From Arthrobacter sp. PM3 (lineage in GTDB: Bacteria > Actinomycetota > Actinomycetes > Actinomycetales > Micrococcaceae), in NCBI RefSeq assembly GCF_003352915.1, contig NZ_CP022314.1, positions 124,001 to 188,000 on the forward strand: 64,000 bases of DNA. The letters run 5' to 3'. Both the position numbers and the translations under genes were made by a program. Position 1 is the first letter of the stretch, and every line of letters begins with the position of its first letter. The notes beneath the pieces are model-generated. The model was not told the origin of the DNA, did no database searches, and saw nothing but the letters and a program-made list of their open reading frames with translations. This document shows positions 7,785 to 13,905 of this stretch, piece after piece.

Positions 7785-8894
7785 TCAGCCGTCGCTGACG
7801 CTCGGACCGAGGTTGGGCAGTTCCTTTTGCCAGAGCCCCGTCACGCCCGCTGTCGTGAAGCCCAGCTGCTGGTTGACCTTCAGCAGGTAGCGGTTCTCGG
7901 GGGCGTTCCAGGTGTAGAGGACCCGGGCGTCCGGGAACTGTTCGCTCAGCCGCTCCATGTTGGCCACTTTGATCAGGAGGCCGAGTTTGTTGCCGCGGTG
8001 TTCCTGCAGCACCACGGTGTCGTCCTGGAAGACGACGTCGGGGCGCAGCGCCAGGACGCTGATGGTGGTCAGGCCCACCAGCGTTCCGCTGGCGATGTGC
8101 TCGACGGCGGTGACCACCGTCCGGCGGCCCTGCGCAATGGTCACGTCTTCGGCTTCCCGGAGGATGCCGCCGTCGAACACCATGTCTTCGGCGTCCGGCA
8201 CGTCGTCCTCGCCGGCCCGGTTTTCCAGGGCGGCGACGGCCTCGAGCCACTGGTCCGGGCAGCGGTCCGTCCAGTGGTGCAGGCGGTACCGGCCGCCGTT
8301 GGCTTCCTCCGCCTCGGCCTCGAGTTCGGCGACCAGCATACTGTCCAGCGGCAGGGAGCAGGAACTGAACTGTTCGATGTGCTGGAGCGTGTAGCCGGTG
8401 TGGCGGGCGAACTCCACGTCCCGGCTGCCGAGCGGAACGAAGCCGACGCCGCTGCCGGGCACCAGTTGCTCGGCCTCCGGATCCGTCAGCGTCGAGCCCG
8501 GATGGTTCGTGTCGATCAGGATGGTGTGGCGGCCCTCGTCCCGGGCGAAGTGCTCGGCGGCTTCGAGCAGCTGCCGGCCCACCCCCTGGCCCCGGAATTC
8601 CGGCAGGATGTCAAGGGTGAATTCGGCGAGGTCGAGGTTGTCCACGAGCGGCAGGGCGATGTCCGCCGTCCCGACAATGACGCCGTCGACCTTGGCCACG
8701 AGGATCACCTGGCGTTCGTAGGGGTCCGCCATCTCGAGCAGCTTCTCCTGCGGGGCGTAGGCGAGGTCATCGGTGCCCCAGGTCTGCATCCGGACGCGCC
8801 GGCCCACTTCGATGGCGGCGAGAAAGTCAGCGGCATCGGGCGCGTCGAGGGAATCGGGGATCCACAGCTGTTCAATCCGTACTTCGTTTGCCAT
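7785..8894 (-). CDS. double-GNAT-domain N-acetyltransferase (paralogue 1)
   Basis: A ~369-residue protein with two GNAT-like halves. The N-terminal half has a clear acetyl-CoA-binding signature, LPEFRGQGVGRQLLEAAE (near 115-132). The second half has LQEHRGNKLGLLIKVANME (near 315-335). The substrate is unknown. The gene at 12790-13905 is a paralogue with the same architecture and shared blocks (LDAPDAADFL / LDAADAGTFL; RHTGYTLQHIEQFSS / RRAGYRLEQVERFSS). The ATG at 8894 (MANEVRIEQ) is preferred, although 8906 is possible. Between rplJ and the mobile element, it and its twin bracket the accessory region. Confidence 0.8.
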   Translation of the reverse strand: MANEVRIEQLWIPDSLDAPDAADFLAAIEVGRRVRMQTWGTDDLAYAPQEKLLEMADPYERQVILVAKVDGVIVGTADIALPLVDNLDLAEFTLDILPEFRGQGVGRQLLEAAEHFARDEGRHTILIDTNHPGSTLTDPEAEQLVPGSGVGFVPLGSRDVEFARHTGYTLQHIEQFSSCSLPLDSMLVAELEAEAEEANGGRYRLHHWTDRCPDQWLEAVAALENRAGEDDVPDAEDMVFDGGILREAEDVTIAQGRRTVVTAVEHIASGTLVGLTTISVLALRPDVVFQDDTVVLQEHRGNKLGLLIKVANMERLSEQFPDARVLYTWNAPENRYLLKVNQQLGFTTAGVTGLWQKELPNLGPSVSDG

Positions 8895-8986
8895 AGAGGG
8901 CACCATCCCAGCCGTTCTGCCACCCGCCGTCGGTACAACCCGGCTCAAACCGGGCTATCACCCGCCAGCATATGCTGGTTTGCGCC

Positions 8987-9037: not shown

Positions 9038-9079
9038 GCGGGGTGCGCGCCGGCTCAGGCTGTGGAGCTTGGCACTTTT

Positions 9080-9109
9080 TGGCGGTGTATTGTTGGCGCT
9101 CTTTGTCGC
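9080..9109 (+). repeat. left inverted repeat of the element
   Basis: Reads inward TGGCGGTGTATTGTTGGCGC followed by TCTTTGTCGC. It matches the right end (12738-12767, read inward on the minus strand) at 25 of 30 positions. The last base coincides with the stop codon of the tniB remnant. Confidence 0.65.
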
Positions 9110-9558
9110 TAGTTGCCGATGACCAGGGTGCTGGCGGCTGCTTCGATGACATCGTCGGTGATGGTTTCGAGTTGATTGACCTTCAGCACCCGGGTGATCT
9201 GGGGGAAGAGCCGCTCGAGCAGCCGGAAGTTACCGCGGGTGATCCGCTCGATCGCGGCGATTGCCTGGGCGTCCGTGAAGTCGTCGGGGTCGAGCGACCG
9301 GCCGATTCTTTTCCAGTGCCGATCGAGGACGAACAGGAGTTCGTCGCGGCCGAGGGGGCGGTAACGATGGGAGAATCCGAGGCGGCTGTAGAGCTGCGGG
9401 TAGTGGCGGAATCGTTGGTCGATGCCGGGCATGCCGATGAGGATGATCCCCAGCTGGGTCCGGTCGTGGTTGTCTCGGAGGAGTTCCAGGGCTGTTGGGG
9501 TGAGGCGTTCGGCTTCGTCGATCCGTTTCGTGGGCGGAGGTTCGGTAGAGCTCGAATA
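9109..9558 (-). pseudogene. tniB: TniB-like transposition ATPase, 3' remnant
   Basis: The open frame encodes the C-terminal ~149 residues of an AAA+ ATPase of the TniB / MuB-like transposition family (COG2842 type). It begins around the Walker B region (KRIDEAERLTPTALELLRDN). It continues through the sensor region LGIILIGMPGIDQRF and the typical C-terminus FRLLERLFPQITRVLKVNQ ... ASTLVIGN. The N-terminus with the Walker A loop is missing; an in-frame TGA lies at 9561-9559 and PIN-gene sequence abuts. It would normally work with a TniA transposase, which is absent. Confidence 0.7.
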
Positions 9559-10014
9559 TCACGGCGTCGGCGACGCTGTTCTTCCCACTGTGGAACGGCG
9601 CGGCCTTTCTCAACCCACGCTCCACAACACGGTTCGTCTCGACCTCCGATTGCTCGATGATCTGGCCGGCCGCGAGGAGCTCACGGATTTCCCGGAAGTT
9701 CCGGGTGGTCATCGCTCCGACGAGCGGGAGATGCCGGCCGAGGTTTTCGAGGACCTCCACGGCGTGACCATCATCGTCACTGCCATAGGTCATGAGATCC
9801 TGGCGGATCTGCCTAAACCGGGCCGAAATACTGGACGTCATCGCCGCCTGAACGCGGGCGTCGTTGCGATCGAATTCCTCAATGACTACGGGTGGGACCA
9901 GCAGCTTTGCTTTTCGTGGTGGATGAGTATTCGCAGAGCGACGATCCAGCGCTGCCCGTCGCGACGTTGCGCAAGGTCGAGGCATGTAGAGGTGTCTATG
10001 AGGAGGTGCAGCAC
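9540..10014 (-). pseudogene. PIN-domain (DUF4935-like) gene, frameshifted and truncated
   Basis: From a GTG at 10014 one frame reads VLHLLIDTSTCLDLAQRRDG...ILIHHEK, a PIN-domain N-terminus with the first acidic residue (D in IDTS). Near 9908-9918, at an A-run, the homology passes to another frame: AKLLVPPVVIEEFDRNDARV, then KNSVADAVIFELY with the later acidic residue. One missing base explains the shift. The 3' end is lost at ~9540, where tniB sequence begins. Related proteins are RNase-like PIN nucleases, often toxins. The copy looks inactive. Confidence 0.6.
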
Positions 10015-10018
10015 GAGG

Positions 10019-10165
10019 TCAGCCTACGGGAGCGTTCTCGTACGTCCCTGCGGGCCGCTCCTCAGCCCACAAGCGTGACCAATTCGTAAGCGCGCGTTGA
10101 GGATCTCCGAACGGGTCATCGGATGTTCCGGCATTGATCCGATCCGTGAGGTTGGTATTGCGTCG
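10019..10165 (-). other. open stretch ending just before the PIN gene (possible partner gene fragment)
   Basis: On the minus strand a stop-free frame reads NTNLTDRINAGTSDDPFGDP, then QRALTNWSRLWAEERPAG and TYENAPVG. Its TGA (10021-10019) lies 4 nt before the GTG of the PIN gene. The composition looks protein-like and the spacing resembles a two-gene operon, but no ATG or GTG start is visible, so it may be a remnant. I do not recognise the family. Confidence 0.25.
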
Positions 10166-10166
10166 A

Positions 10167-10376
10167 TCAGGGTGAGACAGATTCGTTTTGCCCTGAATCC
10201 GCCAGGGTGATGCCGGCGACAGACCAGTTCTCGCGGGGCAGCTCGTGCAAGATCACCCGGATGGTGTCGGGGCGGATTTCCATGACCTCGGCGTAGGTGG
10301 CCGTGAGCGCGGCCAGCAACTGACGTTTCTTCTCGGTGGAGGACGGGGATGCATTGTGAACCTGGATGAGCGGCAT
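10167..10376 (-). CDS. 4-oxalocrotonate tautomerase family protein
   Basis: A 69-residue tautomerase-superfamily protein, typical in length. After Met removal the N-terminal residue would be the catalytic proline (MPLIQVHNASPSS). The conserved helix STEKKRQLLAALTATYAEV and the strand PDTIRVILHELPRENW follow. An upstream in-frame GTG (10382) has better spacing from GGAGG (10397-10393) but would bury the proline, so the ATG at 10376 is chosen on functional grounds. Family members isomerise ketonised dienoic acids or related substrates; the substrate here is unknown. It is cargo of the mobile element. Confidence 0.8.
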   Translation of the reverse strand: MPLIQVHNASPSSTEKKRQLLAALTATYAEVMEIRPDTIRVILHELPRENWSVAGITLADSGQNESVSP

Positions 10377-10457
10377 CCACACATAATGGCATCCTCCGCG
10401 GAACCTCGGCTGGAATCCTTTCGATCACTATTGCGTGATGTTCCGTTAGCGGATCCT

Positions 10458-10556
10458 CTATCGACCGTCCCGCCGTCGGTGCCGCCATGGGAGAAACAGA
10501 CCACATCCGACGATGATGACTGTGCTTGTGACGATCCCAGGCCAAAATCCCCACAT
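10458..10556 (-). CDS. possible 32-residue membrane peptide
   Basis: A short frame starting at the ATG at 10556 encodes MWGFWPGIVTSTVIIGCGLF followed by LPWRHRRRDGR. That is one hydrophobic segment with a strongly basic C-terminus, the pattern of a small single-span membrane protein. There is no strong ribosome-binding site. It lies downstream of merR on the same strand. The rest of 10383-10706 contains nothing else I can support. Confidence 0.25.
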   Translation of the reverse strand: MWGFWPGIVTSTVIIVGCGLFLPWRHRRRDGR

Positions 10557-10706
10557 CTTTTGAATGAAGAAGAAGACCGAGGGACCGTCGTTATTGCGGC
10601 CGCGGCCGTCGGCAGACTGCGCAGCCCCTCTTTCATGCCCCTAAGGCCAGCGCATGGTCAGGGATGTCGCTCAGCGACCCCGCGAATCAATGGATCGTCC
10701 CGGAAG

Positions 10707-11084
10707 TCACGCTGTCGCGAGCAGGTCTGAGTGGTTTGTCCGCTGCAGGAAGTCGATGACGGCATCACGGCTTTTCTCCAAGCAAACAATCCTGTTCTCC
10801 ACGACGCGTAGTTCCCGGGCAAGCTCTTCCGCGAGAGTGCGGTTGCATTCGTCGGGTTGCTCCTGCGCCGCCGGGGCCTCGATGTCGAGGACGATCTTGA
10901 TCATCCGCGTTGACAGGCCGGCTTCTACAAGGGCGCGAACATGCCGGGCATGCTCAATCTGCTCGTCGGAGTAGTCGCGGTAACCGTTCGTCGAACGCGA
11001 CGCCTGAATGAGTCCCTGCTGCTCGTAGTGACGGAGCATCCGTGTCGGTGCACCCACTTTCTTGGCAACCTCCCCGATCTTCAT
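10707..11084 (-). CDS. MerR-family transcriptional regulator
   Basis: A 125-residue MerR protein. The N-terminal winged HTH is classical (MKIGEVAKKVGAPTRMLRHY, then EQQGLI and NGYRDYSDEQ). A long dimerisation helix follows (residues ~75-110) and a short C-terminus. Only two cysteines exist (C80, C101). There is no SoxR-type iron-sulfur cluster motif and no obvious metal-binding loop, so the inducer is unknown. The ATG at 11084 is supported by AAGGGAG seven bases upstream. It is divergent from the flavin-reductase genes, and a MerR-type promoter lies between them. Confidence 0.9.
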   Translation of the reverse strand: MKIGEVAKKVGAPTRMLRHYEQQGLIQASRSTNGYRDYSDEQIEHARHVRALVEAGLSTRMIKIVLDIEAPAAQEQPDECNRTLAEELARELRVVENRIVCLEKSRDAVIDFLQRTNHSDLLATA

Positions 11085-11114
11085 CGCCAATCTCCCTTCT
11101 CTTCCGTCTCCGAT

Positions 11115-11146
11115 TTGACCTTGACACTGATGTCAAAGTTTACGCT
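11115..11146 (+). promoter_or_regulatory. MerR-type promoter and operator
   Basis: TTGACC (11115-11120) and TACGCT (11141-11146) are separated by 20 nt. The spacer holds the perfect dyad TTGACA-CTGA-TGTCAA (11121-11136). An overlong 19-20-nt spacer with a palindrome inside is the hallmark of promoters activated by MerR-family proteins through DNA distortion. It is oriented toward the flavin-reductase genes and lies ~30 nt upstream of merR itself. Confidence 0.75.
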
Positions 11147-11153
11147 GACAAGC

Positions 11154-11315
11154 GTGCCCGTCGACGAGGCGGTTCCGCAACAGCCTCAGTTCCCAACCAA
11201 CCGGGCGGGTGCTCTTGCAAGAAGCCTGGAAGTTCTGAACCACGTTCGCATGACCGATTCGCAACGGCCACGGAAAGCAACTACCACGTCGAGAGAGAAA
11301 AATTTCCTGAAATGA
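11154..11315 (+). CDS. possible 53-residue leaderless ORF coupled to the flavin reductase
   Basis: A GTG at 11154 lies 8 nt past the -10 element, about where transcription should start, so translation could be leaderless. The frame encodes VPVDEAVPQQPQFPTNRAGA... and ends in TGA at 11313-11315, overlapping the ATG of the next gene (ATGA). There is no recognisable domain; the peptide is polar and basic. It could equally be an untranslated leader. Confidence 0.3.
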   Translation: MPVDEAVPQQPQFPTNRAGALARSLEVLNHVRMTDSQRPRKATTTSREKNFLK

Positions 11316-11896
11316 GCACCATGAAAGACCTGACCGCCCGGGAGTTCGGCTACGGACACCCCACACCACTCTTCATGATCGGCACCTACGACGAAGTCGG
11401 CAGGGTGAACTTCATGAATTCCCACTGGGGCGCACTGAACCACGGCGGCTATATCAACCTCAATATCAATACGAACAAGAAGACCCATCGCAACATTGAG
11501 GCAATGAGGGCCTTCACAGTGACGCTTGCCACGGAAGAACTGATGCCATATGCCGACTTTTTCGGCACCTACTCGGGTTACCAGGTGCCCGACAAGTTCG
11601 CCAAGACAGGCTTGACAGTCCAGAAGGCCAAGCATGTCAACGCGCCAATCATTGACGGCAGTACGTTGGTCATCGAGTGCGAGTTGGTGGAGGTTCTGTA
11701 CGAAGAGCACATTCACACGGTGATTGGGCGTGTTGCCAACGTTTCCGTTGATGAATCGATGCTCGATGCGACTGGTCGAGTCGATGCAGGCAGGTTGGGC
11801 ATGATCTTCTTCGATTCGTTCAGTCGAGGATATTTCACGCTAGGCAACAGGGTAGGCGACGCGTGGAGCGAAGGCCGCGTCCTCTCGCCGCGATAA
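11312..11896 (+). CDS. flavin-reductase-like (FMN-binding split-barrel) protein A
   Basis: A ~194-residue protein of the flavin reductase / FMN-binding split-barrel family. It shows PTPLFMIGTYDEVGRVNFMN near the N-terminus, the NTNKKTHRNIEAMRAFTV flavin-phosphate-loop region and a closing EGRVLSPR. Such proteins reduce free flavin with NAD(P)H or use bound FMN; the substrate is unknown. The start is ATG 11312, with ATG 11321 as an alternative; neither has a strong SD. It has lower GC than the surroundings. Transcribed from the MerR-type promoter and followed after 11 nt by a second member of the same broad family. Confidence 0.75.
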   Translation: MSTMKDLTAREFGYGHPTPLFMIGTYDEVGRVNFMNSHWGALNHGGYINLNINTNKKTHRNIEAMRAFTVTLATEELMPYADFFGTYSGYQVPDKFAKTGLTVQKAKHVNAPIIDGSTLVIECELVEVLYEEHIHTVIGRVANVSVDESMLDATGRVDAGRLGMIFFDSFSRGYFTLGNRVGDAWSEGRVLSPR

Positions 11897-11907
11897 GGAA
11901 GTTTGAA

Positions 11908-12480
11908 ATGACGATTCGACCTGTTGAATTGAGTAAGGCCTACCGCCTTGTCCAGCTCGGCGCGACGACCATGCTTTCCGCCAAGCATCACGATGATGCA
12001 GACGTCATGGCGGCGGCATGGGTTGGCCTGGGCGGGCCAAACAAGGTGATTGCCTATCTCGGCACGCAATCCTACACCCGAAGGCTGGTGGAGAAGAGCG
12101 GATACTTCGTGGTGCACATTCCTGCCGCCCAGCAGATGGAAACCGTGCTGTACGTAGGCGGGCACAGCAAATCCACCATGCCCGACAAGCTGGACAATCT
12201 GCCACTCTTCTACCAAGACGGCTGCGATATCCCGATGGTGGCCGGTAGTGCCGGCTACCTGCTGTGCAAGGTGATCCCCAATCCACAGCAGGAACAGGAA
12301 TTTGATTCCTTCATGGGAGAAATCGTGTCGGCCTGGGCAGACAGTCGAGTCTTCGACGGCAGGCACTGGCTCCTCGATGAGGCGCCAGAGGAACTTCGCA
12401 CCGTGCACTATGTCGCCGGCGGCCAGTTCTACGCGATGGGCCAGGGCACGAAATTCAACCACGGCCCTGGACAGGACTGA
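11908..12480 (+). CDS. flavin-reductase-like (FMN-binding split-barrel) protein B
   Basis: A 190-residue protein related in fold but not a close copy of its upstream neighbour. VQLGATTMLSAKHHDDADVM near the N-terminus and YTRRLVEKSGYFVVHIPA in the middle match the flavin reductase pattern. AAGGAAG six bases before the ATG is a good ribosome-binding site, and 11 nt separate it from protein A, so the two form an operon under MerR control. They may act as a pair on a reactive substrate (quinone or aldehyde stress is a common theme in such loci); that is inference. Confidence 0.75.
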   Translation: MTIRPVELSKAYRLVQLGATTMLSAKHHDDADVMAAAWVGLGGPNKVIAYLGTQSYTRRLVEKSGYFVVHIPAAQQMETVLYVGGHSKSTMPDKLDNLPLFYQDGCDIPMVAGSAGYLLCKVIPNPQQEQEFDSFMGEIVSAWADSRVFDGRHWLLDEAPEELRTVHYVAGGQFYAMGQGTKFNHGPGQD

Positions 12481-12737
12481 CAGATTTCGTGGCCCGTACG
12501 GGCGCTGCCCTCGTTTGACGGCGCATTGACCATCCACCCTTGCCGCGGCCCGGGCAGCCCCGACGACCCCGCAATTCGTGTATCCCGCAGCACAACGCGA
12601 CACCGTCTCTCAAACACAGTCGAGGTCCTTCGGCGGGACGAGTCGAGGAAGAAATCCTCCGATCCCGCCAAGGGCCCTCGACCCCACCTCAACCACCAGC
12701 CCTGTCCCACAACTCATCCCTCACCGGGCCGAACGAT

Positions 12738-12767
12738 GCGCCAAACAGCGCCGAAAAAACACCGCCA
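12738..12767 (-). repeat. right inverted repeat of the element
   Basis: Reads inward on the minus strand TGGCGGTGTTTTTTCGGCGC followed by TGTTTGGCGC, 25/30 identical to the left end. It ends 22 bp from the stop codon of the adjacent GNAT gene. The rest of the gene-free stretch 12481-12789 shows no other feature I can support. Confidence 0.65.
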
Positions 12768-12789
12768 TTTATCGCCGCGAGTCACAGGC

Positions 12790-13905
12790 TCAGGCCTCGC
12801 TGACGTCGGGGTCCCCGACGGCGGTGCGCTGCCACTCGCCGTCGTAGCCGGCCGGCTGGAATCCCAGCGCGACGTTGATGGCCAGCATGTGCCCGTTTTC
12901 CGCGGCGTTGTAGGTGTTGACGCGCTGCACGGCCGGGTACAGCTCGAGAAGGCGGCGGAGATTGGCGATCTTGACCAGCATGCCCAGCCGGTGGCCCCGA
13001 TGGGCGGCGGCCACCAGGGTGTCGTCCTGGTCGGCCAGCCACGGTTTGCTGCGGGCCAGTTCCAGCACGGTGTAGGCCGCAAGTTGACCGCTCTCCCGGT
13101 GCCGGGCGGCCACCACCAGGGCGTCGTTGCCGGCCCGCCGCCAGGTGTCTTCGACATGCCGGACGCGTGCGGCGTCCCAGACCTCTTCCTCGATGCTGAG
13201 GCCGCCGGCGGGCGCGTCCGTGCTCATCCGGGACATGAGACGGGCGAGCTGTCCGACGTGTTCGTCCGGGCACCGGTCTTCCCAGAACAGCAGCTCGTAC
13301 CCGCCGGCCTTGGCCAGGGCCTCCTGCTCAAGCCCGTCCAGCACCTCGGCGGCGGCGCGGACGTCCAGGCTGCTGAACCGTTCGACCTGTTCCAGCCGGT
13401 AGCCGGCGCGCCGCGCGAACTGCACGCCGCGCTCGTTCTCCGGGACCGCGCCGGTGCCGGTGAGCGGCCTGAGCATGCCGGGGCCGTCGGCGTCGTAATC
13501 CGCGGGGTGTTCGGTGAAGGTCTGCAGGATGGTGCGGCCGTCCTCGAGGGCCAGGGCTTCGGTGTGCCGCAGGAGGCTCCGGCCGATTCCGCGGCCGGCG
13601 AAGGCCGGCAGCACCTGGACATGGCCGAGGGCGCTGCGGAGGTTTTCCTGCAGGTCGTACCGGATCCAGGCCCGCGCCACCATGCGGCCGTCGACGCGCA
13701 CATAGAACAGCCGGGTCCGCTGGTATGCAGTGTCCCGCCAGTACCTGAGCCGGGCCTCCGCCGGGGTCGCCCGGTCCAGGTTGCCCCACGTCTGCAGCAC
13801 CAGGGCATCGCAGAGTTCGCCGAATTCCAGGAAAGTTCCGGCGTCGGCGGCATCGAGCGTTTCGGGGAGGTGCAGGGGTTCTATGCGGTACGTCGGCGTA
13901 GTCAC
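12790..13905 (-). CDS. double-GNAT-domain N-acetyltransferase (paralogue 2)
   Basis: A 371-residue protein with two GNAT halves, paralogous to 7785-8894. VLPAFAGRGIGRSLLRHTEA is the acetyl-CoA loop of the first domain and AAHRGHRLGMLVKIANLRR that of the second. The shared WEDRCPDEHV / WTDRCPDQWL block lies between them. The start is GTG at 13905 (MTTPTYRIEPLHL). The substrate is unknown. The two paralogues probably arose by tandem duplication and were later separated by the mobile element. It lies directly upstream of the terminator of the rplK-rplA unit. Confidence 0.8.
   Translation of the reverse strand: MTTPTYRIEPLHLPETLDAADAGTFLEFGELCDALVLQTWGNLDRATPAEARLRYWRDTAYQRTRLFYVRVDGRMVARAWIRYDLQENLRSALGHVQVLPAFAGRGIGRSLLRHTEALALEDGRTILQTFTEHPADYDADGPGMLRPLTGTGAVPENERGVQFARRAGYRLEQVERFSSLDVRAAAEVLDGLEQEALAKAGGYELLFWEDRCPDEHVGQLARLMSRMSTDAPAGGLSIEEEVWDAARVRHVEDTWRRAGNDALVVAARHRESGQLAAYTVLELARSKPWLADQDDTLVAAAHRGHRLGMLVKIANLRRLLELYPAVQRVNTYNAAENGHMLAINVALGFQPAGYDGEWQRTAVGDPDVSEA

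What the first reader, a model, noticed from the sequence alone, without database searches (positions are those of the whole stretch)
9080..12767. Element with 25/30-identical inverted ends carrying a MerR-flavin reductase cargo
The 30-bp ends were found by direct comparison of the two edges. They exactly enclose genes of foreign character: tniB stump, PIN remnant, tautomerase, MerR and two flavin-reductase-family genes. The left end touches the tniB stop and the right end lies 22 bp from a core gene. The cargo set (tautomerase + MerR + two split-barrel flavoproteins) looks like a transferable detoxification or redox-response module that I cannot match to a named system.
Basis: partly seen in the sequence, partly recalled or inferred. 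Interest (0 to 1): 0.75.

Follow-up and report, generated by a model that had tools for sequence, protein, structure and literature searches.

The report
Crippled Tn552-like transposon with rare cargo
This is the leftover of a known type of bacterial jumping gene that lost its own moving machinery but still holds, between intact ends, a rare pair of flavin enzymes beside a regulator gene, so it is mostly ordinary as a transposon and mildly interesting for its cargo.

Summary
The 25/30 inverted match is real but is the inner part of longer ends. The element runs 9061-12786 (3726 bp), starts TGTG, ends CACA, and is flanked by a perfect 9-bp direct repeat, GGCTCAGGC, whose right copy holds the stop codon of the flanking GNAT gene. 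All 29 relatives fetched at this site lack it.

Same-genus genomes carry complete elements with the same ends: resolvase, DDE transposase (TniA), AAA ATPase (TniB), varied cargo. That is the gene set published for Tn552. Of 21 elements with both ends (window included), 8 have an exact 9-bp repeat, 4 another exact length, 3 an imperfect one, 6 none.

In the window the resolvase, tniA and half of tniB are gone, and no tniA was detected in the genome. The interior is a mosaic: tniB stump, PIN remnant, tautomerase like those of relatives, MerR gene with its operator, and two intact, constrained flavin reductase-family genes. flav2 was found in 1 of 395 sampled family genomes (the window's own), though the protein database holds a 90% Paenarthrobacter relative. 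Delftia has both genes side by side.

Likely function: inducible FMN-dependent reduction of a xenobiotic (inferred). New member of a known kind.

The parts
9052..9060 (.). left copy of 9-bp direct repeat GGCTCAGGC (target-site duplication)
9061..9110 (+). TniB-side terminal inverted repeat, TGTGGAGCTTGGCAC..., with a 24-bp-spaced internal repeat
9109..9522 (-). tniB 3' remnant: homologous to residues 135-271 of a complete 271-aa TniB, 96% identical; first ATG of the open frame at 9432
9523..9985 (-). PIN-domain (PF16289) remnant, abutting the tniB stump; the open frame 9230-9985 runs on into tniB sequence in another frame; upper limit approximate
10167..10382 (-). 4-oxalocrotonate tautomerase (DmpI-like), up to 94% aa identity to copies in same-genus genomes
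10707..11090 (-). MerR-family regulator gene (open frame 127 aa; ATG at 11084 gives 125 aa)
11115..11146 (+). MerR-type operator/promoter TTGACC-N20-TACGCT with dyad TTGACA-N4-TGTCAA, pointing at flav1; conserved upstream of the 81%-identical merR of G071
   Evidence: dyad; -35/-10 boxes read by eye
11312..11896 (+). flav1, flavin reductase-family (PF01613), 194 aa, nearest solved structure by sequence flavoredoxin 2d5m
11908..12480 (+). flav2, flavin reductase-family (PF01613), 190 aa, nearest solved structure 3hmz (FMN-binding split barrel)
12737..12786 (-). cargo-side terminal inverted repeat (read inward: TGTGACTCGCGGCGATAAATGGCGGTG...), with a 24-bp-spaced internal repeat
12787..12795 (.). 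right copy of 9-bp direct repeat GGCTCAGGC; contains the stop codon (12790-12792) of the flanking GNAT gene

Best explanation
The stretch 9061-12786 is an internally deleted, no longer self-mobile copy of a Tn552-like transposon of Micrococcaceae. Complete relatives encode a DDE transposase (TniA), an AAA ATPase (TniB) and a serine resolvase, have ends with 24-bp-spaced repeats, and most often show a 9-bp target duplication (shown: genes, ends, duplications; inferred from Tn552: strand transfer by TniA with TniB, cointegrate resolution). A copy inserted at the 3' end of a GNAT gene; the duplication kept the stop codon. Resolvase, tniA and the 5' half of tniB were lost (shown by comparison; order and route inferred). 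The surviving cargo is a mosaic whose working part is a MerR regulator gene and a divergent flav1-flav2 operon. Most likely (inferred): MerR binds the TTGACA-N4-TGTCAA dyad in an over-long promoter spacer and switches on two FMN-binding split-barrel proteins that reduce or help remove a xenobiotic or its electrophilic product.
For: Extended inverted ends 34/49 and perfect 9-bp flanking repeat. Exact 9-bp repeats in 6 of 14 paired elements (window included), against 0 of 182 mispaired comparisons above 7/9; further exact 9-bp repeats in a Citricoccus plasmid element and L129. A 24-bp-spaced repeat in both window ends and in 5 of 6 other ends tested (3 or fewer of 1000 shuffles reach it at that shift in 6 of these 7, 15 of 1000 in the seventh). 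Resolvase-TniA-TniB order in complete relatives. Second 550-bp two-ended relic in the same genome with a 7/9 repeat. No TniA detected in the host genome, with 3 of 3 positive controls found. Site without the element in 29 of 29 fetched relatives. A 4778-bp relative at two different sites in two species, 4773/4778 identical, so the family is recently mobile. Flav1 and flav2 intact and constrained: dN 0.10 and 0.18 with saturated synonymous sites against Delftia. Operator conserved with G071.
Against: The window copy itself has no transposase, so its family rests on its ends and a 137-residue tniB piece. Of 21 elements with both ends, 6 show no duplication and 3 only an imperfect one. Usual TSD length differs from the 6 bp published for Tn552. 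The Citricoccus TniB-side end shows no significant 24-bp repeat (166 of 1000 shuffles). No relative closer than 77% at the GNAT gene was found at gene length, so the exact pre-insertion sequence is not seen. The substrate and even the activity of the flavin proteins are untested; MerR control of the operon is inferred from layout and operator.
Confidence: 0.88

Rival explanations
1. The two ends belong to different insertions or are chance similarity, and the cargo came in by ordinary recombination between the GNAT paralogues.
For: The inner 25/30 match alone is reached by 3 of 3000 random edge pairs; the interior is a mosaic.
Against: Both ends are recognisable ends of the same transposon family in other genomes and are enclosed by a perfect 9-bp direct repeat, against at most 7/9 in 182 mispairings.
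Confidence: 0.04
2. A non-autonomous but still trans-mobilisable element that moves with TniA/TniB supplied by incoming plasmids.
For: Both ends keep the two 24-bp-spaced repeats; 41 plasmid records match TniA at 60% or more, the 25 listed all actinobacterial; 32 of 206 genus genomes hold a strong TniA match; a 550-bp two-ended copy sits elsewhere in the genome.
Against: No second copy with this cargo in the genome and no flav2 match at E up to 1e-15 in the other 205 genus genomes.
Confidence: 0.3
3. The flavin pair is a fragment of a catabolic pathway (amidohydrolase-linked, as in Delftia) rather than a stand-alone detoxification module.
For: In Delftia sp. PS-11 flav1-flav2 is followed by an amidohydrolase and an SMP-30 gene; a 68%-identical amidohydrolase (374 aligned residues) lies near a flav2 relative on a Klebsiella variicola plasmid.
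Against: No amidohydrolase in the element; flav2 also occurs on a Staphylococcus plasmid in another setting.
Confidence: 0.3

Closest known systems
Tn552 (Staphylococcus; genes p480, p271, bin)
   Same: Transposase plus ATPase plus resolvase with further cargo genes; insertion at res sites beside resolvase genes; truncated forms that lost the transposition genes are documented (PMC3276174, passages seen). Transposase 481 aa and ATPase 271 aa in L038.
   Different: Reported repeat is 6 bp (10-bp repeats at some plasmid sites) against most often 9 bp here; reported inverted repeats about 120 bp against about 49 bp of clear match here; cargo differs; window copy lost tniA and resolvase. Tn552 proteins were not compared directly.
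Tn5053/Tn402 family (tniA, tniB, tniQ, tniR; recalled)
   Same: TniA/TniB-type transposition proteins; preference for res sites (recalled).
   Different: tniQ not seen among the 7 of 12 L038 open frames (180 aa or more) scanned with Pfam; 5-bp duplication (recalled) not matched.
TnsB of type V-K CRISPR-associated transposons
   Same: Nearest solved relative of TniA by sequence, E 2e-42 (the V-K label is recalled).
   Different: No Cas or TniQ gene among the 7 L038 frames scanned; no CRISPR search was made.
Flavoredoxin / NADH:FMN oxidoreductase split-barrel proteins (PF01613; 2d5m, 3hmz)
   Same: Flav1 matches 2d5m at E 2.2e-27, flav2 matches 3hmz at E 3e-43 and TM-score 0.93.
   Different: Two different PF01613 genes in tandem facing a MerR gene on a transposon.

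Membership tests
Tn552-like transposons | DDE transposase (p480/TniA), ATPase (p271/TniB) and serine resolvase | tested here: inconclusive
   Met in complete relatives with the same ends; in the window only the tniB 3' part remains. So the window is filed as a derivative of such an element.
Tn552-like transposons | terminal inverted repeats containing repeated transposase sites | tested here: met
   34/49 inverted match; 24-bp-spaced repeat in 7 of 8 ends tested at 15 or fewer of 1000 shuffles, not in the Citricoccus TniB end, 166 of 1000. In one search shift 24 tied with other shifts in 2 of 8 ends. That these are transposase sites is inference.
Tn552-like transposons | short target-site duplication (6 bp reported for Tn552) | tested here: inconclusive
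   A duplication is present, but 9 bp in the window; among 21 elements exact lengths 9 (8), 10 (1), 8 (1), 7 (1), 6 (1), imperfect 3, none 6.
Tn552-like transposons | insertion near resolvase genes / res sites | tested here: inconclusive
   An outside resolvase match lies within 150 bp of an end in 6 of 21 elements (L044, L045, L055, L126; L130, L136; L126 read from the hit list); not in the window copy. res sites themselves not sought.
Tn5053/Tn402 family | tniQ gene | not tested
   No search for TniQ was made; one search scanned 7 open frames of one element.
MerR regulators | MerR HTH and operator in an over-long promoter spacer | tested here: met
   PF13411 E 2e-18; dyad TTGACA-N4-TGTCAA conserved with the G071 homologue but for one base of the spacer between its arms; 20-bp spacer read by eye; binding untested.
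Flavin reductase-like split-barrel proteins (PF01613) | PF01613 domain and FMN-binding split-barrel fold | tested here: met
   Both genes pass the Pfam cut-off; flav2 model pLDDT 89.1 and TM 0.93 to 3hmz. The flav1 model was not finished at the last poll. FMN binding untested.

The most novel reading that the evidence does not exclude
Flav1 and flav2 form a rare two-part flavoprotein reductase that spreads between phyla as a gene pair and is re-wired to a local regulator: a MerR with its own operator in this actinobacterial transposon, a LysR in Delftia.
Probability: 0.3. Interest if true: 0.5.

Novelty: new member of a known kind. Interest (0 to 1): 0.33.

Why it matters
It shows that transposons with the gene set of Tn552, which the passages I saw describe on staphylococcal plasmids, are a frequent, recently active cargo carrier in Arthrobacter-type bacteria (32 of 206 genus genomes hold a strong TniA match), with 9 bp as the commonest target duplication. 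It also flags a rare flavoprotein gene pair whose neighbouring regulators differ between lineages.

Tried and rejected
Rejected: 9080/12767 as borders (ends and repeat lie 19 bp further out). Doubted: the cargo as one transferable module. I compared longest-contig lengths by eye: flav1 and flav2 relatives share three (28782, 7346 and 1132), whereas the 120 listed of 133 MerR relatives share two short ones with flav1 (992 and 1033, under different source labels, probably chance) and none that I saw with flav2. This is a weak test, as only the longest contig is listed. Rejected: recent transfer from Delftia; DNA identity is only 72% and 68%.

Led nowhere: plasmid search for flav1 gave only matches below 60% identity, in 14 records. 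In 149 related genomes flav1 had only weak matches besides the window's own (30 of 149 with any at E up to 0.001, own included, best other 36% identity). Paper searches for Tn552 with Arthrobacter (0 papers), Tn552/tniA with target site duplication, tniA/tniB with Arthrobacter, Tn552 with p480/p271, Tn552 with direct and inverted repeats, Tn552 with actinobacterial genera, a 9-bp target site with tniA, and flavin reductase with MerR: in the listings I saw no title that describes this element or gene set. Passages were seen of PMC3276174 and PMC8705779. One search reached only 15 of 29 loci because the others were in the opposite orientation; one search repeats it on all 29. No direct comparison with Tn552 proteins was made.
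Full report
Observation. The best inverted match of the two edges is 25/30 at 9080 and 12767, exactly as written. By itself it is not decisive: 3 of 3000 random pairs of 110-bp edges in the window reach 25/30, none more. Extending outward, both edges begin TGTG read inward, match 34 of the first 49 bp, and are followed outside by the identical 9 bp GGCTCAGGC (9052-9060, 12787-12795). The element is therefore 9061-12786, 3726 bp. The right repeat contains the stop codon of the flanking GNAT gene (12790-12792), so that gene still ends in a stop.

Independent support for the borders. DNA search of 149 genomes (own included) found matches in 63; many consist only of an end, and right-end matches often stop at 12786/12787 although the query ran to 12800. 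The left border cannot be judged that way, because the query began at 9060; it rests on aligned ends of eight elements, unrelated flanks outside TGTG and the direct repeat.

Direct repeats. In one search I tested 14 elements with two ends, the window and a second 550-bp relic of the same genome included: 6 have an exact 9-bp repeat, one each an exact 8-, 7- or 6-bp repeat, three an imperfect one (7/9 for the relic in the same genome, 9/10 for L053, 6/8 for L041) and two none (L037, L052). Among 182 mispaired flanks the best 9-bp match was 7/9 (2 cases); no control was made for the shorter lengths. One search adds a Citricoccus plasmid element (exact 9 bp; an alternative start two bases away gives an exact 7) and L126 (none); L127 was dropped because its record ends at the element. 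One search took 16 further loci: 5 gave end pairs, with exact repeats of 9 bp (L129) and 10 bp (L128) and none in L130, L136 and L138; 11 gave no pair with my pattern. Mispaired control there: best 6/9 in 38. In all, 21 elements: 9 bp in 8, another exact length in 4, imperfect in 3, none in 6.

What the carrier is. Complete relatives have, in order, serine resolvase, TniA (rve and Mu-transpos_C), TniB (AAA_22) and the TniB-side end, with cargo between resolvase and the other end. Published Tn552 has p480, p271 and a resolvase, 6-bp repeats, about 120-bp inverted repeats, insertion at res sites, and derivatives that lost the transposition genes (PMC3276174, passages seen). An internal repeat at a 24-bp shift ranks first, tied in two, among shifts 12-31 in 8 of 8 ends; against 1000 shuffles it is reached at that shift in at most 15 for 7 of 8 ends, but in 166 for the Citricoccus TniB end. 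An outside resolvase match lies within 150 bp in 6 of 21 elements. TniA occurs strongly in 32 of 206 genus genomes but was not detected in the window's own genome, where the same search found it in 3 of 3 controls. So the window copy is a transposition-deficient derivative.

Site. The right-hand GNAT gene matched in 116 of 149 genomes; 29 loci besides the window's own were fetched. At the GNAT pair, 29 of 29 lack the element: 24 have 196 bp or less between the matched parts, 5 have 0.7-1.1 kb. In the four of these five that were tested, the interval holds a further GNAT copy. None of the 29 has tni genes or a match to one cargo-end pattern with up to 5 changes.

Interior. The tniB piece (residues 135-271 of a complete copy, 96% identical) stops at 9522 and abuts a PIN_12 remnant. 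The tautomerase is up to 94% identical to those of same-genus genomes. MerR with 86 bp upstream is 78% identical in DNA to G071; the conserved part includes the operator. Beyond it, similarity ends and the flavin genes begin. MerR relatives are common in actinobacteria. Flav1 has 45 relatives at E up to 0.001 among 5.8 billion proteins, flav2 98, both limited by the word filter. Flav2 was found at E up to 1e-15 in 1 of 206 genus and 1 of 395 sampled family genomes, each time only the window's own. Against strict rarity, the protein database holds flav2 relatives of 90% in a Paenarthrobacter (P0047, the same family by name) and 82% in Basfia (P0052), and flav1 relatives of 91-92% on unnamed contigs (P0001, P0005). 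One named genome, Delftia sp. PS-11, has the pair side by side (86% and 74%), with a divergent LysR gene and an amidohydrolase and SMP-30 gene behind. Synonymous sites are saturated while dN is 0.10 and 0.18: old separation, strong constraint.

Function. Flav2 models as an FMN-binding split barrel (pLDDT 89.1, TM 0.93 to 3hmz). Flav1 is nearest flavoredoxin 2d5m by sequence. The layout (divergent MerR, operator, 11 bp between flav1 and flav2) suggests one induced operon. The substrate is unknown; a 68%-identical amidohydrolase near flav2 in both Delftia and a Klebsiella variicola plasmid (the Kosakonia plasmid also lists an amidohydrolase, not compared) points to xenobiotic or heterocycle handling. 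This is inference.

Verdict. A real transposon derivative of a known kind with a rare, intact cargo pair; of modest interest.

Noticed in passing
L004 7613-8162 (G000:C1:1073612-1074161): A 550-bp two-ended relic of the same transposon family with a tniB 3' end lies elsewhere in the same genome, with a 7/9 flanking repeat.
   Followed up: partly
L038 2070, 5638, 10766: This element has a second cargo-type end inside, in the same orientation as its outer one, as if cargo had been added stepwise.
   Followed up: no
L040 5578-10355 and L041 5534-10311: The same 4778-bp element, 4773 identical bases, sits at different sites in two species, with two TniB-type ends and an exact 8-bp repeat in one of them.
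   Followed up: partly
L120 and L121: Klebsiella variicola and Kosakonia plasmids carry a 61-62% flav2 relative in a cluster with aldo/keto reductase, NAD(P)H-dependent oxidoreductase, LysR genes, MFS transporter and an amidohydrolase.
   Followed up: partly
L128 2141-6473: A 4333-bp element with a 95%-identical TniA and an exact 10-bp flanking repeat has too little room for a full tniB on the TniB side.
   Followed up: no
window 7785-8948 and 12790-13905: Two large GNAT-family paralogues flank the element; in L075, L076, L078 and L081 a third paralogue lies between them.
   Followed up: partly
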